From: Orbilia blumenaviensis
Lineage: Eukaryota; Ascomycota; Orbiliomycetes; Orbiliales; Orbiliaceae
Reading direction: 5' to 3'
DNA length: 64,000 nucleotides
Assembly (NCBI GenBank): GCA_036872755.1
Contig: JAVHNS010000017.1
Location: 310,001-374,000, forward strand
Part shown: positions 19,804 through 33,776 of the stretch, piece by piece
Layout of the letters: each line of letters begins with the position of its first letter
Numbering within the stretch: the stretch's first letter is position 1
Position numbers and translations under genes: made by a program
Notes under the pieces: generated by a model
What the model saw: only the letters and a program-made list of their open reading frames with translations
Told to the model about the DNA's origin: nothing
Databases searched by the model: none

Positions 19804-21051
19804 ATGGGCAATTTCTCTCGCTTCAATATCTTGGTTCTTGCCTTGATCACTTTCGCTTCTTTTTGCACAGCACGCACTGTCATTACTATCAATGGAAGTT
19901 GCGCCACTCGTTATTGCGGCTCCCCCGTTCCCAAGTCGAAAATAAGAAAGGCTGTAAAAACGTTCTGTACGACTGTCCCGTATACGGTAACGCGCTGGAA
20001 AACAGTCACGAAACCAAAAACGACGACGACGATTAGGAAGACGAAAAAGATCAGTCTCGTTGTAACTAAAACTATATCTACTGTTACCAGCACGGCGACA
20101 AAATCAAGTAAGGTGACTAGAACGTCCACATTCACAGTTACTGTGCCTCGTTGGATCGCGACAGGGTCGATCACAACTTTTACGCTCCAGTCTCCTACAG
20201 TCACCATTCCTGCCCCTTCAGGGTTCGTTGGTGTAAATGACGACCCAGATAACGTGAAGTCTCTGCCCCCGATCAATCCACTCGCTCGCCGCGACGCAAA
20301 GGCTGAGCCGGAACCTGGTAATCATCCGAGATACATAACCGCAATTACCTGTACAAAGACCCTCCTCACAAAAACTGGCACAAGTGACCTTTGCAAAACT
20401 ACGACGAAGACCATAGGTACTGCTAAAGAGACAGTCTGGACGACCCAGACTATCCGATCAACCAAGACTGTTACCAAAAAAGGCGCGGTTACGGTACGCA
20501 CAACGGTTACAAAATATACAACTGTATCCGCAGTTACGACCAGGAGCGTTACTAGAGCAGCCACATCATTTTTTACTACGGAGACTGTGTCCGTCCCTCG
20601 AGCCACTTACTACGCGGCATGCGGAATAAGAAATCAAGGCCCACCTCCCGATGAACGTCGCTATTACGCAGCCGAGGCAGCACCTTTTGCGGACGAAAAA
20701 ATTGAAATAATCATGAGCAACGGCACAATCTACGATTGCTGCGTAGCCTGCCAGACATGGGCAGGACCTGGAACATGCATGGGCAGCGTATACAACTTTG
20801 CAGGTTTCTGGGGGGATCCGGGCCCATGGCCTTGTGAGGACATACAGCTCCCAGGGTTCCCGACGTGCCCACCGCCCCCGGTGGCGAAGTTTTCCAGCAA
20901 ATGCGAACTGGCTATCAGCGATTCCAAATCGGGCACCTGTCGTCGTCAAAAATATGAGTACTGGTGGTACACGGAACAGCCTCCGACTGTTGTTAGCAAT
21001 GGACCGGGTTGTAAGAGGTTTAAGTACAGGGGTAGAGGTGCACCGCTTTAG
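19804..21051 (+). CDS. Secreted Thr/Val-rich protein with Cys-rich PAN-like C-terminus
   Basis: A single 415-aa exon with a favourable ACCATGG start context. Residues 1-23 form a signal peptide (hydrophobic FNILVLALITFASFCTA). A short Cys module follows (CATRYCGSPV ... TFCTTV), then Thr/Val/Lys-rich tracts of TVT and TKT type (about 45-130 and 190-265). These are separated by a dibasic site (ARRDAK, near 162) suitable for a Kex2-like protease. The C-terminal 140 residues carry about ten cysteines (YYAACGIRN, DCCVACQTW, GTCMGSVYNF, SKCELAI, GTCRRQ, GPGCKRF), a pattern I associate with fungal PAN/apple-like domains. It is probably an extracellular or wall-associated protein. No GPI signal is visible. 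Its function is unknown. Confidence 0.85.
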   Translation: MGNFSRFNILVLALITFASFCTARTVITINGSCATRYCGSPVPKSKIRKAVKTFCTTVPYTVTRWKTVTKPKTTTTIRKTKKISLVVTKTISTVTSTATKSSKVTRTSTFTVTVPRWIATGSITTFTLQSPTVTIPAPSGFVGVNDDPDNVKSLPPINPLARRDAKAEPEPGNHPRYITAITCTKTLLTKTGTSDLCKTTTKTIGTAKETVWTTQTIRSTKTVTKKGAVTVRTTVTKYTTVSAVTTRSVTRAATSFFTTETVSVPRATYYAACGIRNQGPPPDERRYYAAEAAPFADEKIEIIMSNGTIYDCCVACQTWAGPGTCMGSVYNFAGFWGDPGPWPCEDIQLPGFPTCPPPPVAKFSSKCELAISDSKSGTCRRQKYEYWWYTEQPPTVVSNGPGCKRFKYRGRGAPL

Positions 21052-21468: not shown

Positions 21469-22500
21469 TCAGCAGTTGTCGACCGTCAGGCAGTATCGTA
21501 GATCGTTGCCCTGCATAGAACACATGGGACAGTTACCGAGATTCATACAGAAGCTCATCCTAGAACAGTACCAATCCGGTATTAGTTAGCGTCCCTTCTA
21601 CCAACAGAATCCGGAAAGGTCTACCTTGAAATCCAACGTGGTTGACGTCCGCACAACACCAAGCCAATCCTCCAACTGCAGCTCTTCAAATGAAAATTTA
21701 GATGTCACTGTTCCAAGGTTGCTATTCGGCTTGAACAGAATGGGATCGTCCTTCGACCATGGCAGCGCCGCCAAAGTTATGTTCATATGTGTCTTAACAG
21801 AGACTTCAACACTGGCTTGGAAAGGATGTCCGTCGTATTCTACCAAAATGGCACAAGTCACTCGATCAGGTATGCCCCTGTTCTCCTTTCTGTTCTCTCT
21901 TATTGACCATTTGACAGCGTTATTGTTCGTGACCCCAGACGAAGCTATAGGCAAGCCTTTAATTTCAGCCCGGTGGGTTTTCGGGAAGCGGGTTTCGTAT
22001 TGCACTGAAGCCTCAGGGCCTGTCTGGACTGGTCCGACGGACAATAATAGTGGAACCGCTATGCCGAAGGACCATTTTCTGCTTTCTAGAATGGGAACTC
22101 CGTATATATGCCGCGGGCAGAAGTTTAGAACCGTCACAGAACCTTGAGTTTCATTATTAGGCGAGACATAGTTTGCGCCGATAACTGTCCCATCTTTCGT
22201 TTTTACAAACTCGATTATTATATCTGCGGCCTTGAATCTAGGCATAGAATCCGCATCGAAAACGAAAAGAAAGTCGAAAACCAGAAGACATGACGGTTTT
22301 TGGTGATAGGTTCCATACTGAACACCTCGCAGTATTCCTCGAAAGCCTGTGTTGCGGATGAAGGATTGGTCTGTGATCAGAGATCGATTCGTTTCACCGT
22401 CCAGGTGTTCCTGGCGACCTAAAACCCCCGAGGATGGGTCAATTATAAATGGTACATCTCGTGTGATCGTTTGTGCTGGTCCTGGCTGGTCCGATGCCAT
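21469..22500 (-). CDS. Unrecognised 329-aa protein with Cys-rich tail, paired head-to-head with the CHAT gene
   Basis: The main exon runs 22500-21602 and a second exon 21559-21469 (899+91 nt, 329 aa). The 42-nt intron (GTAGAA to TCTAG) has a GCTAACTAA branch. Without it the frame stops at 21598. Splicing adds a 30-residue tail with five cysteines (SFCMNLGNCPMCSMQG, RYCLTVDNC), whose regular spacing supports the splice. The body looks beta-rich, with alternating hydrophobic stretches (SCLLVFDFLFVF, VTCAILVEYDG, ASVEVSVKT) and conserved-looking motifs (AVKWSIRENRKENRGIPDRV, SKDDPILFKPN). There is no signal peptide or membrane helix. I believe similar uncharacterised proteins occur near fungal NLR-like genes but cannot confirm it here. 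The start is 547 bp from the start of the CHAT gene on the other strand. Confidence 0.7.
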
Positions 22501-23047
22501 TGCCCTGCTCTGTAGCTCTCAATCCTTCGAGATATAGTTATTCAGCGCTGACTAGTTGTTAATACCGGGAAGATTTGATTGCCTTCGGGACGGATGCTAT
22601 ATAAGGATACTTCAAGATTGTAAATTTATACTAGTTACGGTGTATTGGTGGAATTGGGACAAAGGTTGGTTATCCCCTGAACTCGACGCAACGGAGCCTT
22701 GCCGCCTCAGTTCTAGGCCGTGGCATGATATCCGAGTGAAGAATGGATACCCGATAATATCCGTTTGTGCCTCAGCTCATCGCGTGGGGTGCATACGTGC
22801 ATACACAGGTACGTACCATTTCCAGGAAGTGATGCAAATTACGCAACGACATGGAAAGGTGCCAGCCTTATTCCTAAATAACTAGATAGGCGCATGTGAT
22901 ACAACCCCTGCCTGAAAATTAAGAATCTTGAGTCAAGGGAACCACCGTTGCATTGGTGGCAATTCGGAAAGACAAAATAACTCAACCGAACCTCTAGTAC
23001 ATAGAATTGTACAAGTTTGGGTAGATCTTGGAGTTAGATGGTCAATA
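22501..23047. promoter_or_regulatory. Bidirectional promoter of the 329-aa gene and the CHAT gene
   Basis: The two start codons at 22500 (-) and 23048 (+) face away from each other across 547 bp. The plus frame of the CHAT gene is open back to 22928, but the first ATG is at 23048. No recognised operator is visible. Confidence 0.5.
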
Positions 23048-26000
23048 ATGTCAGCACAGAGCAGCACCTACGAGTTACTAGAAAGCCCAGCCGGAGACCG
23101 GAGCAACCAGGAAATCGATGAAGTCATCACAGATATTTCATTCGGTAAATATACGAAAGCAAGGCTAACTTGTAGCCGATTACTTCTGGGGTTCCACCCT
23201 GGCGAATCTCTTAAGGAATGGGCAAAAGTCATTGTTGAAGTTATCAGACTCTTTATTATTATTGGTAACTTCAGTGCCGCGCTACAGACGATCCATGATG
23301 TCGAGAGCTTGAAAGAGATTCCAAAAGATGGGTTGGAGCAACCTCAAACACAAATTTCGGATGAATGCTCGAATATTAGTGTTGATGCTGAGGGGGAACA
23401 GACCTCCTCGGCTGCTGGTCAAGCCGGGAATAGCTTGGAAGTTAGTATTGATGGGGATAGGGAAATACAAGAAATCGACTTAGTCTTTGAGCTGCAAACC
23501 GCTTTTTGCAAAGCTATGAGTGATGGCAGATTTCACAATCTACAGATACCCTTCGAAAAGGGGCTGGAGTGGATATTACAGGACGAGGTCGAAACTTCGA
23601 AAATTACTAGATACACGGTAGGTTGAGTTCGATTTTATACGTATGGAAGTCGCACTCTTTCTATATTATAACTCATAATCAGGTTACTAAGTGTTAATAT
23701 TATTTGCAGGTCCTTCTCCTATCATACACAACGAAACTTGCCGCGATTGCAGAAACGTACAAATTCCCGAGCGGTCCTCTCAGAAGAGGCAAAAACAAAG
23801 AGAGCCTGACAAAAGTTCTACGCCTCTTTATTAATAAACTGAAACAGTGTAGCCGGGTGGATGAGGCGCATATTCTGATTCGAGAACTAAATTCACTCGA
23901 CCCAACAGCAAAACTACCCAATCTACTTCAACTGCTGGACTGTTGGGGACTATACGATTCACCCGCTAAACTTGCAGACTTACATCTTGATATTGCTGAA
24001 GCTGCTCTGGCAGCGCGGCAAAAGGGGTTAGCGAAAAGCTATGCGGTACTCGCGCTGGTCGGGTATAATTCTACCAATCATCTCTTGGGTATCAAGAATA
24101 CACTCTACTTACAGGTAAAACTCACGGATGATTATGACGACAGCGTAGTCGTCAAATCGGGCCGGGTGAATTTCTATGCAATTAAAAGTCTGTGCGACTT
24201 TTATGAACAAATTGGAGATAGAGCCGGTATTCAAAATATATATGTTGACTGGACAGAGATGGCGAGAGCCCGCGCTGATCTCGACAGTTACCTTATTCTG
24301 AGCGACGACCTGTACTACATGACGAAGCAAGTGGGATCGAATTTGACGTGCCTGCACACCCGTGTTCTACAGATTGCGTTTTTCCTCAGCCGAACCGCGA
24401 ATACAGCAAAGACCCTGGAATGCATTGATGCAGTCTTGGAGGATGTTGCAAAGTTGGAGATTCCATATCTTCAAGGGCTAGTGGCTTCTCTAGCATCAAG
24501 GACGTATTTAGCCATGGGCCGTCAAAAATCCGCTCTCAGGTTTGCAGAGATTGCTTTGGCGAAACTTAGACCTTGTGGGCCAGATTCTGAAAGCGGGGCG
24601 AAATTTCAACTCGTTCAGTGTCGGAAGGAAAGAGTGGACAATCGCAGCAAGCCTGGGGACACCCATAAGCCTGGTCGACTCGCAAATATCATCCGAGATA
24701 CTGAGGAGCTAATAGCTGTTGATTTAAATGGAGAAATGCATTCCGAGGCGGCAGACAAGCTTCTATACCTCGCAAGCCTCCATTATGAAGAATTTGACAA
24801 ATCGGCGGAGACTCGCTCCCAATCAGCGATACATGCTCTCAACCGCGCGATTAAGTGTTCCTCGCATTTGAAACCTAGGGAATCCAAGTATATATTTGCA
24901 TCCGCTTTCCAACTTCGGGGTGCCCAAATTCTGATAATACCCGGTATCCCAACACCAAAAGAGAAAGGAAAGTCGCTCAAAGATTTACAGAAGTCACTTG
25001 AATATTTTGGGGAGCTGAATATGTGGTACCAAACGGCGGCTGTTAAACAATATATGGGGTTGGTACTTCAGAACCAGAGCTGGCGGGATCAAATTGACTC
25101 CCTGGACTGCTTTGAGGCAGCTTACCTCTTATATGAAAAACTGGGTCAGACAACAGAGTGTATTGCTGTTAGCTCTTTAATGCTGAAGATATGCTACAAT
25201 ATCTGGAAAAGATCGGGTTTCTCGGAGCAGGTGTCAGTGGGCCTTCTTGAGGCCCTTGAGAGAACTTCAAAATGGCTGGACTACCGCCGCTCAGAGCTAT
25301 CTGCGCTGGGTGGGCTCCAAGCAATCATTGAAAAGCAGGCGCTCGCCCGGGACTCTCAAGTCCAAAATCTGGGCGAAATCGCTTTCCATTACTGTGTTGA
25401 GTCAAGAAGCGCTGAACAGGCATGGTATTGGGTCCAAAGGCAGAAAGCAAGGAGTGTCGCCGACTTGATGGGACTTGGGCATGCTTCGGATGAATACTCA
25501 GCTAAGCATAAGGTCGAGTCGGAACAAATAACAACTCTACTAGAAGAACATACACGATTATTATCGCAAATCCGAGATGCATCGCCTGGAAACAGGTTGG
25601 TTTTACGAGCCACTCATTCTAGACTGTTGGACCGAATGAGCCGATATGCAGAATTGAAGGAACTGATCAATCTTCAACTTGGGCAGCCTATCGATTTCAG
25701 CGATCTGGAGAGTATATTTTCTCAGGACACGGGCCCTCAAAGCTACGACATAGTCTTGGTCGACTGGTTTTCGACAGAAACGGATATTTATATGATCTCA
25801 AGTCGATGTGGAACTCCCCCAAGGGTATCAAAACTTGAGAAATCAATAGGATATATTTTAGAGCGGATTGCAAATAACTTTACGGATATTGAAGATAGAG
25901 AAAATACCCTTGACAGCGACCCAGATGATCCAGATGCTCCATTCCGAGAGTTAGATTTCCTAATATCGCCATTAGCGGACTTTACTCGGCCAGGAGACCT

Positions 26001-26958
26001 TCTAGTCCTGGCGCCTTGCCAGCCCCTTCACTCAATTCCGTTGCATGCCCTGGTCCTTCCGACTGGTGGCCGCTCAGAGATACTAATTAAAAGAAACCCA
26101 GTCATATATACCCCAAGTCTTACGATCTTCAAGCATTGCGTTAGTCGCGCCGAGAAGCCTAGGGAATTTAGATCGGAAGGCATCAGATGTGCTGCTGTCT
26201 ACGAATACCCTCCCACACAACCCTTCAGGGCGGCAGAGCAAGCTATGATCAAAAGCAACATAGATAATCTTGGAAGCCTATTGAATACGAAACCACTGTG
26301 GGGCAACAACTGCACCAAAGAGGCCTTACGCTCCCATTTCAATGGGGCGTCATTGCTTCACTTTCACGGGCATTGCCATTACGATAGTGTCAATATTCTC
26401 AACCACTCTCTCGTAACTTCCGGGGTCTATAACAATTTAGCACTAGGAATTCGAAGCCTCTCCAGCACAAAACTGATAGAAGATGACAAGAATACTTTGT
26501 CGAATCGTATTCTATTTCTGGGGCAGAAATATGAAGGTCTAGAGTTTGAGTATAGCATACGGCCGCAGAATACTGGGCTTTCGATATCAGAAATATTTGA
26601 GGTCCAACTCGCGGATCCCGTAGTAACGATAATCGCCTGCGAATCAGCATCTCAGCAGATAGGGCCTGGAGACGAACCACTTGGACTTGCGACGGCTTTC
26701 TTATGCGCAGGTGCTTCTTCGTACGTAGGGACTATATGGGAAATGCCTTGCGAAGAGGCAAGGGTCTTTTCAACGGCATTTTACGAAAATATACTAAGTC
26801 AAAAGGGAGCTCGAACTGTCAACCTGGCTTTTGCACTACAGTCAGCGGTTTTAAAAGTTATGAGCATTCCAAAGAGTCGGAATTATATGTACTGGGCGCC
26901 GTTGGTTCTTCATGGGTCATGGTTTTGCCAGTCGGGTGTTTTCTGGAAGAACAAATAA
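23048..26958 (+). CDS. TPR-like / CHAT-domain (caspase-like) protein
   Basis: Exons 23048-23617 and 23710-26958 (570+3249 nt, 1272 aa). The intron is GTAGGT to TTGCAG in phase 0. Residues about 30-850 are mostly alpha-helical, with TPR-like pairs such as LHTRVLQIAFFLSRTANTAK, LVASLASRTYLAMGRQKSAL and YLLYEKLGQTTECIAVSSL. Residues about 930-1265 form a CHAT domain, a caspase-like cysteine peptidase fold. The histidine motif LLHFHGHCHYD (likely catalytic H1078) and the cysteine motif IIACESASQ (C1167) are both present. The family continuation EPLGLATAFLCAGASSYVGTIWEM follows. The PCQPLHSIPLHAL strand is also typical. No signal peptide is seen. CHAT proteins are proteases in prokaryotic gasdermin and TPR-CHAT systems and occur widely in fungi next to STAND receptors. 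Activity and substrate here are inferred. Confidence 0.88.
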
Positions 26959-27282
26959 TATTGATGCATGATCGTGAAATGGCTAACTGGGCCGCCACGA
27001 CTTGAAGTCTTATCAACATCCAACGTTACAACACGTTGTACGTATCTCCTGTGCGTAGATGCATTGTTCGCTCCACATCCTGAAATTATGTAGCCTTATA
27101 AATTATAAGCGGTTACCCCGCTTGAGTTCTGGTGCACAACTACATTTCGAAATTTCGAGTTCAAGTCGTTGGTAGGGTCTAGCTTCTGACTGCCACTGCA
27201 ATACGGACTAATCCACAATATAGGTAGCGCGAGAAATTATAAAACGCCTATACAAAGAACTTTCCTCTTTATTGTTTCAGCC
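26959..27282. promoter_or_regulatory. Spacer upstream of the NACHT-WD40 gene
   Basis: 324 bases between the CHAT stop and the NACHT start, both on the plus strand. It must hold the CHAT 3' end and the NACHT promoter. The ATG at 27283 is in a GCCATGG context, supporting the start. Confidence 0.5.
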
Positions 27283-30200
27283 ATGGAAATTGTGGGCGGG
27301 GTTGCCAGCACCGTCACGCTCGTGGAGGTGGCTGGCAAAATCGGGCTGCTCTGCGCGAAATATATATCAGAAGCTCGAGGGGCCAAAGAAGATGCCGAAA
27401 GGATCATGAAAGAGACCTCGGTGTTCAGCAACCTTCTCAAAGATGTTGATAGTATGCTCAACGGGCCCGCTGCTACCTATTTGAAGGCTTCGAAAACTCT
27501 CGACGGCGCAGTCCGCGACAGTAGAAAAGTCCTGGAGGAACTGCAGAAGGATTTGGAACAGGGGCTAAAAGGAAGGGAAAAGCCGAAGAAGCCGGGTATC
27601 TTTGGAAAACTTACGAAATTTGTGAAGATCGAGGATCTGAAGTGGCCATTTGAGAAAAAAGATGCATTGCAGATCATTGAGAACCTCAGGGCACTAAATG
27701 GAGCAATCACTTTAGCCCTTCAGGTCGATGGAATTTCGCTGGCTACTATCAGAGACCAGAGAGCAAATCTCGATGCACTAGGCGCAGTCAAGGAAGCAAT
27801 GTTTGGATCACTTGAGGATCAATATGAGCCGCAGTGCCTCCCGGATACCAGAATGGAGGTCCTTGACAGCATTGAAAGATGGATAACAGGCCCACGAGAC
27901 AGTTGCATATTTTGGCTGCGCGGTATGGCTGGTACCGGAAAATCTACTGTCGCACGCACAGTTGCAGGTCATCTCAAAGATAAAAGCCAATTAGGAGGGA
28001 GCTTCTTTTTCAAGAGGTCACAAGCTCACCGGAATAACTCCTCGAAGTTCTTCCCTACTATTGCTTACGGCCTCGCGATGCATTTGCCGCTTCTAATGCC
28101 GTACGTCAGTAAAGCGATTGAAGATAACCCTGACGTCCCGAAGAGAAACTTTAAGGAGCAGTTCGATAAGCTCATATTTGAACCTCTTTCTCAGATAGCC
28201 CTCACCTCAACGGTAGTAGTGATCATCGACGCTCTTGATGAGTGCCAGGGAGAAAGAGAAGTACAACTAATTCTCAAGCTGATGGGGAAGCTACGCGAGT
28301 TAAACGGCGTGGACTTGCGCATATTCATTACCAGTCGGCCGGATCATGCTCCAACCGCAGGATTCCAAGGATTGTCGGATAGTAGAGTCTTGTATCATGA
28401 TCTGGCCCTACACGACGTCGAAGCGGAAAAAATCAGGCGCGATATTCAGATTTTCTTGACGCATGAGTTTACACAAATGCGGATCCACCGCCACAATAAA
28501 CTTCCGGACCTTTGGCCTGGGCAAGACGTAATTGAAAGACTGGTCGGAATCGCTGAACCCTTATTCATATCAGCGGCAACCATATGTCGTTTCGTTGATG
28601 ATAAACACTTCCCCCCGACAAAACGCCTTGAAACTATTCTAGGATCGGATCACAAAGCATCTGGGGTTTACCCCATATACTTTACGGTTTTCGAACAGAT
28701 ACTTGAGGGTATGGTTGACATGGATGATGGCGATAGGAGCACTATTGTCGAGGAGATCCGAAAAATTGTCAGCACTGTTATTATGCTTGAGGTCCCCCTC
28801 TCTCGGCAGACACTGTCAGATCTTATACTTATGGACGAAGAGACAATACATGTTCGACTTCAGCCTCTCAATTCTATTTTAAGGATTCCTATGGAGCCGG
28901 ATATCCCAGTGCAGACGTTCCACTTGTCTTTCCGGGACTACCTCTTAGACGCGAAAGAAAAACATAGAAATCCATTTAATGTAGATGAAGAAGCAACCCA
29001 CAGAAGGCTAGCCAATGATTGCATCGCGCTTCTATCAAGAACTCTAAAGAGGGACGTGTGCGGCTTGAAGGCCCCAGGGATTTTTGCTTCCGATATTGAA
29101 CCAGCTCTTCGCCAACAAAGTATATCTGCGAGTGTCGAATATGCGTGCAAGTACTGGGTACACCACCTAAAAGCGGGTCGATGCCCACTCGAAAATGACG
29201 GTGTGGTTCACATATTCCTTCAAGTGCATCTACTCCATTGGTTGGAAGCGACAAGTATCCTTGGTATACCATCCAAAATCATATATTTGATCAAAGACCT
29301 ACAGTCATTAGTTACGGTAAGTATGCATGTTCAGCCCGGCCTTTGGTATATACAACTTGATACTCATAGATATCATGAAAATAGGAAGGGAACGGAGGTG
29401 TTCAGTTGATGGAACTGCTAAAAGATACTGAACGGTTTGTAATGTCAAACCAATTCATAATTGCTAAAGCACCATTACAGGTGTACTGTTCGGCACTCCT
29501 CTTCTCGCCAAAAACAAGCGCTGTGAAAGCTCTCTACGCACCAAGCTATCTGGCTTGGGTTCGGAAAGCTCCGGAAGTTGCCGAGGATTGGGGTCCGATG
29601 TTACTAACAATACAGAGCAACTGTGGCGAGGACATCAAGCACATAGTGTTCTCACCAGACTCCAAGTCGCTGGCGTTAGCTCTGAGCTCTAGTATGATTG
29701 AGCTATGGGATGTAACTACCGGAGCACTGGTGCAAGAGTTTAGCACTATGAATGCTCCGGGATTCTCACCAAATGGCCGGCAGTTTGTATCCGGAACGTC
29801 CACAACGGATTGGGAGAGCCAAATCCTCTTATGGGACGTGGTTCCTGGGTCACCCATTCAAATTTCGGATGTCCCCCAAAAAACTTTAACCTTTAAGGGT
29901 ACTGCGGAGCATAGTTACTACGGCTGGGCTAAGCCATATTTGCTAAGATTTTCACCAAATGGCGAACTAATTGCCTCGGTGTCGTGCACGGGGGTTTACA
30001 TATGGGATACAACATCGGGAACGGTTACACGCATCTCCGACACGGGGAGAAGGGTCGTTTTTTCCCCGGAAGGCAACAAACTTTTTATAGAGTATTATGG
30101 CTCTATTAGCATCTTTGATGTAAATTCCGGGGAAAGACTGAACATATTTGAGTACACAGTGCCAGCACTTCCCACAACTCTAGCATTCACAAAAGATGCG

Positions 30201-30683
30201 AAGCACTTTGTATCAGCAACGTGCCCTTTGCAATTGTGGACAACCTCTGGAGAATATGTACGAGAATTCAATCACGACGCCAGACCGGTCCCACATGTTA
30301 CCGCATTGGATTTCTCACCAGATGGCACACAATTACTATCAGTACAGAATGGCAAAAATATTGTATTACAGGACGTGGCTTCTGGGAAATTGTTGAAAAA
30401 CGTCCGCAATGCTTACCATGGTGATTGCCAGATAGAATCGATTGTATTTTCACCAAATAACCTCCTATTTGCGTCGTCAGGGGGAGCAAGCCTCAGTATT
30501 TGGGATGCCAATAATTTTCGAGAGGTTAGCCACAGAGCAAGAGCATCCAGTCCCCTTCTGGGCCTGGGTTTAAAGAGAACAGCTTGGTCACCAAACAAAC
30601 AATTGCTAGCCAAATTAGCGCAGTCCTCGGAAAGTGTTGAAATATGGAACTCGGTTTCGAGGACCCGTGTTCAAACAATTTAG
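27283..30683 (+). CDS. NACHT-WD40 STAND (NLR-like) protein, up to an in-frame TAG
   Basis: Exons 27283-29316 and 29385-30683. The intron (GTAAGT to AAATAG) removes a stop and restores a typical junction into GVQLMELLKDTERF. The product to the TAG is 1110 aa. Residues 1-180 are a helical N-terminal domain of the kind at the head of fungal STAND proteins (GGVASTVTLVEVAGKI). The NACHT core has Walker A GMAGTGKST (214-222), Walker B VVVIIDALDEC (311-321) and a sensor-like IFITSRP. A winged-helix/helical region ends in TFHLSFRDYLLD. After the WD40-entry signature (FIIAKAPLQVYCSALLFSPKTS), degenerate WD40 repeats begin (HIVFSPDSKSLA ... IELWDVTTG; VLRFSPNGE). The TAG at 30681-30683 cuts the propeller in mid-blade, and the same frame continues for 300 codons. 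Proteins of this class sense ligands through the repeats and trigger incompatibility or cell death. Confidence 0.88.
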
Positions 30684-31586
30684 ATGACCGCGAAGGTTGA
30701 TGATATAGCATTTTTACCGAATGGTAAACTAGCTATAGGTCTGGGACGGGATCGGGATCACATGGAGGAGAATCTCCTAGCGGTTGTATTATGCGACCCG
30801 GATTCTCAAGAGTTCTCAAAAAAGTTCAAATATTCAAACCCCTACCAGCAGCATAATATTGTGTCAATCGTATTCTCGCTAGATTGCAAGAAGATCGCAG
30901 CTTTCATAAGCGGTCACATAAATTTTCGCGTTGTTGTGTGGGATATCACTTCCGAGATAGAACTACAACATCTCAACTATGCAGCCAGTCCTTTGACCGG
31001 CATTGCATTCTCAGCAGATGGTACCCAGCTAACAACGTATATTAATTGGCCTCTCTTCGGGGAGCGTACCCCTTCCGATGTCGTAATACACGATTTAGGG
31101 CCTAAAAGGCGCACGCAGACGCTTAATACTAAGTTTGAGAACGAGTCCTGGAAAATTGCATTATCTCCTGACGGCAGGCAGGTTTGGGGAGACGATGGCG
31201 GAAGCGTCTTTTGCCATCGCTGGGACCTGTATTCCGGAACGGTCTCACAGGTACCCAATGTTAATCTGGGTAGATCAAATCGGTTGCATTTCTCCGAGGA
31301 TGGGAGAGGTATTGAATTCGAAAATGGCTCAGTTGAACTCCCCCTAATCCAGGGAAATGATCCTGCCCCTCCACCGACCCGCCGACTCTACTACTGCTGT
31401 AACAGGGACGGGTTCTTAGTCTTGAATGGAAAGGCTCTTTTATGGATCCCGCTCGAATACCGGCCAAGAACGCTGCGTAACATCGACTCCCTTTGTATGT
31501 TTGTCGCCGAGTCAGGCCATCTGGAACATCTAGAGATTGACGAAACTTTATTCTGCGAGCTTTGGTTTGGGGATTTTCGGTTCTGA
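30684..31586 (+). pseudogene. In-frame continuation of the WD40 propeller beyond the TAG
   Basis: This 300-codon segment starts directly after the TAG, in the same frame as the upstream WD40 part, with no intervening spacer. It encodes further WD40-like blades (VDDIAFLPNGKLAIG, IVSIVFSLDCKKIAA ... VVVWDITSE, LTGIAFSADGTQL, WKIALSPDGRQVWGDD) and ends at a stop at 31584-31586. It has no plausible independent 5' region. It is therefore either the C-terminal half of one disrupted gene, or reached by readthrough, or the TAG is a sequence error. Confidence 0.75.
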
Positions 31587-32566: not shown

Positions 32567-33776
32567 TTAAAATGGCACCTTAACAGCCTTCAAGGTGATG
32601 GGCTTACAACGCGCAAAGTTAGGGCCAGGGGAATAGGAAGCGACGGGATATACCCATAGAAACTGGTTAACCGGGTCTGGATCGCATCCCCAGAGCTTTA
32701 ATTCAATCGATGCGTCGGCTGGGTCGTAGGCTTTAATGGCGTCACCGATTAGTGCAAACGGCCATGGAATCGTGTTATAAGTGTCGAAGAATAAGAAAGT
32801 GTGTCGGATGCTTGGGTTAGAGAGCCAGCTCGAAATACCCGTGATTGGACTGCCAGTTTGAGTATGATGAATTACACCATCGGTCAAGGAAAATATGTCG
32901 CCACTACCGGATGGCGTGAACGAAAGACCGCTCCGCTCATACACCATGTGGGCATAGTAGCCGTCGTACTGAGAACCTTGGACTTGTATAGCGAATCTTG
33001 CAGAGAGGGGGATACGGACTGTATCCGTGGCAGTGGCGACAATGGTAGTCTGTGTCAAAGTGGCATCCGTGGTTTCAATGGTGTTGGTAGCATCAACAAC
33101 AGTAACGTAGTTTGTGGTCACAGTGATCGTGGTGGTCACAGTGGTCTGTGTAATGGTCTCATCTGCAGAGACTGTGACGGTCGAGGCAGGAAGTGTGATA
33201 GTAGTAGCGGTCACTCCGACGCAAGAACAAGCGCTGGAATAGCGGGCGGCACCCGAGCATAAGTAGGCATATGTTGGGATATCTGAGGGAATTTCGGTCT
33301 GCTGCCTCTTTACGAGATCTTCATATGCTGTGTTTTGGACGGTCACAGTAGCTGGTATGAGCTCTGTAGCAGTACGGTGGATCGTCTCTGTAACAGTCTC
33401 GTAAACCGTGCTTGTAGCAGTAGCGTCTTGTGTCGCACTTGCGGTGGCATATTCTGTATTTGTAGCGGTAACGGTCCTAAATATTCCATTAGAATAAAGG
33501 TACCTAGGCAGCTAAAAGTCGTAGAAATAGGGTGACCTACACCACAGCTGGAGTTACAGTTGTTCGGAGGAATGATGAACAATCGGCGGCTCCTTGCCTT
33601 GTTGGAAAGGCAGATGCACGAACAGCTGGATATCATTGACCAAATTGTTAGTAAGAGAAGACTTATTAGGACCAACTGGGAGATAGCTAAAACTTGCCTC
33701 GAAGACAATTATCCGCGTCACACCGGGCCGCACTGGCCACTGCGAATATAGAAAACGCAGCAAGGACGTATTTCAT
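32567..33776 (-). CDS. Secreted Thr/Val-rich protein with Kex2 site
   Basis: Minus-strand exons 33776-33698, 33625-33541 and 33476-32567 (79+85+910 nt, 357 aa). The first intron uses a GC donor (GCAAGT) with a CAG acceptor and the second GTAGGT with TTTAG. Residues 1-16 are a clear signal peptide (MKYVLAAFSIFAVASA). A short Cys module follows (CDADNCLRAVRA ... ADCSSFLRTTVTP), then Thr-rich VTVT and ETVTET tracts. A KR site (DLVKRQQ) precedes a mature-looking region with CSGAARYSSACSC and further TTITVT tracts. The C-terminal 150 residues look globular (RFAIQVQGSQYDGYYAHMVY, SIELKLWGCDPDPVN). The Cys-module/Thr-tract layout resembles the secreted protein at 19.8-21.1 kb. Function is unknown. 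Confidence 0.8.

What the first reader, a model, noticed from the sequence alone, without database searches (positions are those of the whole stretch)
21469..31586. STAND receptor + CHAT protease-like + small unknown protein cluster
Three neighbouring genes could form a functional set: a NACHT-WD40 STAND protein, a TPR-like/CHAT protein with both catalytic residues, and a divergently transcribed 329-aa protein of no recognised family. Established knowledge: fungal STAND proteins control incompatibility and cell death, caspase-like proteases can activate pore-forming partners, and fungal cell-death genes often lie next to their protease or receptor partners. Inference: the 329-aa protein could be the substrate or effector of the CHAT protease, with the STAND protein as sensor or a parallel receptor. 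Position is the only direct support.
Basis: partly seen in the sequence, partly recalled or inferred. Interest (0 to 1): 0.75.

Follow-up and report, generated by a model that had tools for sequence, protein, structure and literature searches.

The report
Fungal protease-paired haemolysin-fold protein
In a nematode-trapping fungus, a small protein that is predicted to fold like bacterial pore-forming haemolysins sits head-to-head with a caspase-like protease gene, and its relatives elsewhere in the genome sit beside protease or immune-receptor genes, which suggests a protease-switched cell-killing pore that is not a gasdermin.

Summary
The pairing of the small protein with the CHAT protease is real. 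The window is Orbilia blumenaviensis TWF730. The small protein has 300 aa, not 329, and is transcribed away from a 1272-aa CHAT protein with intact His/Cys. In O. javanica the two orthologues carry neighbouring locus tags. Five members of the small family were found in this genome: two divergent to CHAT genes, two divergent to subtilisin (S8) genes, one before a STAND-ankyrin frame. A CHAT/S8 hit lies within 6 kb of 4 of 5 (nominal P 1.7e-7; about 1.8e-4 as two events); a STAND hit lies within 6 kb of 4 of 5.

AlphaFold2 of a same-genome relative (pLDDT 65) matches the alpha-haemolysin/leukocidin fold in all 43 Foldseek chains at E<=1e-3, with low TM-scores. The window protein's own weak model, built without that clade, points the same way. 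No leukocidin sequence similarity was detected.

Best reading: a cytosolic haemolysin-fold pore-former switched by a protease sensor, parallel to fungal gasdermin-protease clusters. Pore formation, cleavage and cell death are inferred. The window's STAND frame has an in-frame stop; its role is uncertain.

The parts
21533..22500 (-). Small gene (TWF730_004221): exon 1 22500-21625, intron 21624-21560 (65 nt), exon 2 21559-21533; 300-aa protein of a family predicted to have the alpha-haemolysin/leukocidin fold
   Evidence: Gene model; identical public protein P0001; family; fold
21949..22125 (-). Stretch of the small gene that aligns with the long predicted beta-hairpin of its relative P0013 (residues 109-164), the candidate membrane-inserting stem
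   Evidence: Alignment A8 columns printed; hairpin in the P0013 model; uncharged stretch at residues 143-162. The coordinates are my conversion from that alignment and approximate
22501..23047 (.). 547-bp intergenic region between the two divergent start codons, candidate shared promoter region
   Evidence: Start codons; promoter function inferred, not tested
23048..26958 (+). CHAT gene (TWF730_004222): exon 1 23048-23617, intron 23618-23709, exon 2 23710-26958; 1272 aa
   Evidence: Gene model; public protein P0006 identical over its length
25957..26916 (+). CHAT caspase-like protease domain; His1078 codon 26371-26373, Cys1167 codon 26638-26640
   Evidence: PF12770; invariant His/Cys columns in 6 of 6 aligned proteins; codon places checked by eye (which residues are catalytic is recalled family knowledge)
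27283..31586 (+). STAND frame: N-terminal region without Pfam family, NACHT/NPHP3_N NTPase, WD40 repeats; intron near 29317 (several candidate ends, among them 29384 and 29405); in-frame TAG at 30681-30683 separates the last ~300 codons. Uncertain member of the set

Best explanation
The small gene and the CHAT gene form a two-gene unit. The small protein is a cytosolic, soluble beta-pore-forming protein of the alpha-haemolysin/leukocidin fold, kept inactive in the cell. The CHAT protein, with its long N-terminal part, is a sensor protease: on sensing a trigger (non-self in a fused hypha, a virus, bacterial products or damage) it cleaves the small protein, probably in its weakly structured ends (the C-terminal ~60 residues are the first candidate). 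The released core oligomerises and inserts its central hairpin into the fungus's own membrane, killing the cell. Relatives do the same with an S8 protease in place of CHAT, in some loci with a STAND receptor as a third gene. Shown: the genes, their domains and residues, the linkage in this genome and in one sister species. Predicted with moderate confidence: the fold. Inferred: cleavage, pore formation, cell death, trigger.
Confidence: 0.55

Rival explanations
1. The small protein is a cytoplasmic defence or attack toxin against nematodes or other predators, as proposed for the haemolysin-like protein P450139 of the mushroom Coprinopsis cinerea. The protease keeps it in check or matures it, and it acts on the eater, not on the fungus.
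For: Orbilia is a nematode-trapping genus (recalled). PMC6434838 (passages) describes a cytoplasmic C. cinerea protein with HHpred similarity to leukocidins (best 85.9% probability, over 75 residues) that is induced by nematodes and toxic to them. The window protein also lacks a visible secretion signal.
Against: Relatives occur in Podospora didyma, Botrytis elliptica, Eutypa lata, Cercophora scortea and Trematosphaeria pertusa, not known to me as nematode hunters. The partners are proteases and STAND receptors of intracellular type, which suits an internal switch better (inference).
Confidence: 0.17
2. Three-gene unit: the STAND protein is the sensor, it activates the CHAT (or S8) protease, and the protease activates the haemolysin-fold protein.
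For: NPHP3_N STAND hits lie 1.7 to 5.4 kb from 4 of the 5 family members: C17 (window), C3, C1, C5; chance of at least 4 of 5 within 6 kb about 9e-6 if loci were independent. At C3, C1 and C5 a STAND-ankyrin frame follows the small gene on the same strand, with a SPRY frame behind it at C1 and C5.
Against: The window's STAND frame carries an in-frame stop, lies on the far side of CHAT and is of the NACHT-WD40 type, unlike the ankyrin type at C3, C1 and C5. No STAND hit lies by the C6 pair (nearest 634 kb away). STAND hits are abundant (124). C3 and C1 look like duplicates (small proteins 60% identical).
Confidence: 0.3
3. The small protein is a divergent fungal gasdermin and the haemolysin match reflects only a generic beta-sandwich in a low-confidence model.
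For: Same size class as HET-Q1 (278 aa, PMC10989679 passages) and the same protease partners as fungal gasdermins. The window's own model is weak, and Ig-like domains also match it.
Against: The 43 Foldseek chains at E<=1e-3 for the better model are haemolysin-fold; PDB entries of gasdermins exist (named in a passage of PMC12881547) but none is among the 50 of 680 rows shown. No gasdermin profile hit in 17 of 17 members.
Confidence: 0.12
4. Chance or regulatory neighbours: the genes share a bidirectional promoter region but no common pathway.
For: Direct biochemical evidence is absent; 6 of 6 other CHAT loci examined lack the partner.
Against: Repeated divergent pairing with two unrelated protease classes, and adjacent locus tags in O. 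javanica.
Confidence: 0.08

Closest known systems
Fungal gasdermin-protease clusters (HET-Q1/HET-Q2 and Q2-like; TPR-CHAT/gasdermin pair of Podospora anserina)
   Same: Small partner gene (here 262-322 aa) beside an S8 or CHAT protease gene, in some loci with ankyrin repeats or STAND genes (PMC10197012 and PMC12881547 passages).
   Different: The small protein has no detectable gasdermin similarity, and its best fold match is haemolysin/leukocidin. Cleavage not tested.
Alpha-haemolysin/leukocidin beta-pore-forming proteins
   Same: Predicted fold with a long central hairpin; similar length.
   Different: No sequence profile match, no secretion signal visible in the window protein, fungal and genetically coupled to proteases.
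Coprinopsis cinerea P450139, nematode-induced haemolysin-like protein
   Same: Cytoplasmic fungal protein with remote similarity to leukocidins (PMC6434838 passages).
   Different: A basidiomycete defence toxin; no protease partner is mentioned in the passages seen. Its sequence was not compared here.
Type III-E CRISPR TPR-CHAT protease (Craspase) and bacterial CHAT-gasdermin systems
   Same: A CHAT protease with a neighbouring protein substrate (recalled; Craspase and bacterial gasdermin-protease clusters are cited in passages of PMC12881547).
   Different: No gasdermin match here. The CHAT protein's nearest listed relative outside Orbiliales was from Candidatus Poribacteria.

Membership tests
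Protease-controlled pore-former gene pair (fungal gasdermin-protease type) | Small partner gene adjacent to a protease gene, repeatedly | tested here: met
   4 of 5 family members within 6 kb of a CHAT or S8 hit, all four divergent; adjacent locus tags in O. javanica
Protease-controlled pore-former gene pair (fungal gasdermin-protease type) | Protease is S8 or CHAT with intact catalytic residues | tested here: met
   CHAT; S8 domain; S8 motifs read by eye (assignment of the triad recalled)
Protease-controlled pore-former gene pair (fungal gasdermin-protease type) | Partner is a gasdermin | tested here: inconclusive
   No gasdermin Pfam match in 17 of 17 members, no PDB sequence match, gasdermins absent from the rows shown; absence from a list does not exclude
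Protease-controlled pore-former gene pair (fungal gasdermin-protease type) | Proteolytic cleavage releases the toxic core | not testable with these tools
   Needs co-expression and a cleavage assay
Alpha-haemolysin/leukocidin pore-formers | Haemolysin fold with central stem hairpin | tested here: met
   Predicted only, for relative P0013 at moderate confidence; the window protein's own model is low confidence but agrees
Alpha-haemolysin/leukocidin pore-formers | Sequence match to the family profile | tested here: not met
   0 of 17 members match a leukocidin profile at E<=1 in Pfam-A. It is therefore described as having this fold, not filed as a member
Alpha-haemolysin/leukocidin pore-formers | Amphipathic, uncharged membrane-inserting hairpin | tested here: inconclusive
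   Uncharged run at the hairpin in 12 of 17; alternation within the range of permuted controls
Alpha-haemolysin/leukocidin pore-formers | Secretion signal | tested here: inconclusive
   Hydropathy only: window protein's best N-terminal 9-mer 1.13; the 17 members range from 0.02 to 2.10. No dedicated predictor was available
Alpha-haemolysin/leukocidin pore-formers | Oligomeric membrane pore | not testable with these tools
   Needs purified protein, liposomes, cryo-EM
CHAT proteases | CHAT domain with catalytic His and Cys | tested here: met
   PF12770 E 2.4e-28; His1078 and Cys1167 invariant in 6 of 6
CHAT proteases | Associated TPR repeats | tested here: inconclusive
   No TPR hit in the window's CHAT protein at E<=1; weak TPR_2 E 0.03, below cut-off, in the C6 paralogue
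Fungal STAND/NLR receptor | NACHT-type NTPase plus WD40 repeats in one open frame | tested here: not met
   Domains present but an in-frame stop at 30681-30683 interrupts the WD40 part; it may be a shortened protein, a damaged gene or an assembly error

The most novel reading that the evidence does not exclude
Haemolysin/leukocidin-fold proteins form a further class of endogenous, protease-gated cell-death executioners in filamentous fungi, beside gasdermins and HeLo-type domains. They have been wired at least twice, to caspase-like CHAT sensors and to subtilisin-type sensors, often with a STAND receptor in the same cluster: pyroptosis-like logic with a non-gasdermin pore.
Probability: 0.45. 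Interest if true: 0.9.

Novelty: new variant of a known kind. Interest (0 to 1): 0.75.

Why it matters
If true, the protease-plus-pore logic of pyroptosis is modular: the same CHAT and S8 sensor types that switch on gasdermins in fungi would also switch on an unrelated haemolysin-fold pore. That would give a function to a family of unnamed fungal proteins, add an executioner to fungal immunity and allorecognition, and link a fold best known from secreted bacterial toxins to controlled self-killing in a eukaryote. It is directly testable with two genes in yeast.

Tried and rejected
Gasdermin fold as first guess: not supported by the best fold matches, though a family that is not listed is not excluded (50 rows shown each). 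Viral structure library: no match at E<=0.001. Bacterial relatives of the S8-linked clade: 77 pattern matches in GTDB genomes, none a relative by tblastn; the CHAT-linked clade was not scanned. Hairpin alternation: within the range of column-permuted controls (61 permutations each), so not used as support. The weak C2 hit of the small protein (E 0.56) lies in an unrelated frame and was not counted. PADLOC (small protein, CHAT exon 2 and STAND N-terminal frame given): only weak matches to the STAND frame, none to the other two. So there is no confident model of the window protein itself. Other CHAT loci: none of 6 examined has a family member.

Literature: what I saw (listings; 25 of 241, 3 of 3, 15 of 2,519, 8 of 8, 15 of 16, 4 of 4, 15 of 8,375, 12 of 228, 7 of 7, 12 of 57 papers shown) held no title or abstract on haemolysin- or leukocidin-fold proteins paired with proteases in fungi. 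The library lacks most subscription papers and preprints. The key gasdermin paper (Clave et al. 2022, PMC8851545) is not held and is known here only through reviews. The nearest print found is PMC6434838 (passages). Passages only were seen of PMC12881547, PMC10197012, PMC9815663, PMC10989679, PMC7159879, PMC6434838 and PMC3110756.

Mended on checking: hydropathy does not exclude signal or membrane segments in every member (two of 17 exceed 1.6 in a 19-residue window), so that claim is now limited to the window protein; the STAND frames at C1 and C3 were scanned and distances computed.

Full report
What is there. The window belongs to Orbilia blumenaviensis TWF730; proteins identical to the small and the CHAT gene products are public as TWF730_004221 (300 aa) and TWF730_004222 (1272 aa), both on a 935,034-base contig, which is the length of contig C17 that holds the window. 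The small gene runs from 22500 to 21533 on the minus strand with one 65-nt intron; the CHAT gene runs from 23048 to 26958 on the plus strand with one 92-nt intron. The start codons are 547 bp apart. The STAND frame 27283-31586 has NACHT/NPHP3_N and WD40 domains but one in-frame stop at 30681-30683.

The CHAT protein. PF12770 matches at E 2.4e-28. His1078 and Cys1167 are invariant in an alignment of 6: the window protein, A. flagrans, O. javanica, D. cionopaga, Poribacteria and the C6 paralogue. The part before the CHAT domain has no Pfam match in the window protein at E<=1; the paralogue gives a weak TPR_2 match. In a tree of CHAT domains (12 rows: 8 of the 9 hits of this genome and 4 others) the window and C6 CHATs fall in one half with the Poribacteria protein and C11, and the CHATs of C3:1.30M, C1, C7 and C9 in the other (support modest, C4 and C11 are long, unsure rows).

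The small family. A single-sequence search found 5 proteins; a 7-row profile found 16 at E<=0.01, from Orbilia (several), Podospora didyma, Trematosphaeria pertusa, Botrytis elliptica, Cercophora scortea, Eutypa lata and unnamed sources. They form two clades, homologous by profile comparison (99.3%, E 6e-21). With the C6 relative 17 members were scanned: Pfam gave one weak unrelated hit (E 0.05) at E<=1, NCBIfam none at E<=0.1.

Linkage. Five members were found in this genome (the search tool calls such counts lower bounds): C17 (window), C6:694-695k, C3:2174k (TWF730_006806), C1:612.5-613.4k (TWF730_000185) and C5:1421.0-1421.8k. The genome gave 9 CHAT hits, 41 S8 hits merged to 36 loci and 124 NPHP3_N STAND hits. 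Within 6 kb of the member lies a CHAT hit at C17 and C6 and an S8 hit at C3 and C1; neither kind at C5. All four are head-to-head. Ankyrin repeats lie upstream of the S8 domain: clear at C3 (E 1e-9), below the curated cut-off at C1 (E 0.002). At C3, C1 and C5 a STAND-ankyrin frame follows the small gene on the same strand, with a SPRY frame behind it at C1 and C5. The nearest STAND hit is 5.4, 2.2, 1.7 and 2.5 kb away at C17, C3, C1 and C5, and 634 kb away at C6. Nominal chance of 4 of 5 with CHAT/S8 is 1.7e-7; since C3/C1 look like duplicates (60% identical) and C17/C6 may descend from one pair, a fairer figure is two events, about 1.8e-4. Against: CHAT orthologues of A. flagrans and D. cionopaga turned up without a named small partner, and 6 of the 7 other CHAT hits here have no member nearby (the C8 hit was not examined).

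Mechanism. The window protein shows no hydrophobic N-terminal core and no helical membrane segment by hydropathy, so it is probably cytosolic; among the 17 members two exceed 1.6 in a 19-residue window and no signal predictor was available. Published fungal gasdermins sit beside S8 (~63%) or CHAT (~19%) protease genes, and a TPR-bearing CHAT protease activates a gasdermin in Podospora (passages of PMC10197012 and PMC12881547); HET-Q1 has 278 aa and loses about 40 C-terminal residues (PMC10989679 passages). The arrangement here is the same with another fold in the effector position. The C-terminal ~60 residues are mostly of low confidence in the model and are the first candidate for a removable segment. 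This is inference.

STAND. The window's STAND belongs to a large family (48 matching stretches in this genome, itself included) and its frame is interrupted. No STAND hit lies at the C6 pair. Yet 4 of 5 loci have a STAND hit within 6 kb, three of them in the same place and orientation. I leave a three-gene unit as a serious rival (0.3); it is compatible with the two-gene core.

Novelty. Fungal haemolysin-like proteins are not new in print: C. cinerea P450139 is a nematotoxic one (PMC6434838 passages). The pairing with CHAT and S8 proteases was not seen in the listings examined (several of them capped). I rate it a new variant of a known kind.

Noticed in passing
L034 7419-9770(-), L035 1-681(-), L037 8346-9998(+) (C9, C3:1.29M, C7): Three CHAT genes without a small partner have a metacaspase-like frame (Peptidase_C14, E 1e-10 to 4e-15) in the same 10-kb stretch; these CHATs fall in the other half of the CHAT tree.
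   Followed up: partly
L034 1319-2389(-) (C9): A PNP_UDP-type frame (E 5e-9), a known fungal NLR effector domain (PMC9815663 passage), lies beside the C9 CHAT gene.
   Followed up: no
L033 1825-8549(+) (C5): The C5 family member is followed by frames with STAND, many ankyrin repeats and SPRY; the frames before the STAND look like a degenerate alpha/beta-hydrolase by eye; the one frame scanned there had no Pfam match.
   Followed up: partly
window 30681-30683: In-frame stop in the WD40 region of the STAND gene; a related STAND match at C17:582596-584575 has three in-frame stops.
   Followed up: no
P0010: The only listed hit of the window CHAT protein outside Orbiliales was a Candidatus Poribacteria protein (23% identity over 84%), and it falls in the same half of the CHAT tree as the window and C6 CHATs.
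   Followed up: partly
window 19804-21051(+) and 32567-33346(-): Two threonine/valine-rich frames flank the block; not analysed.
   Followed up: no
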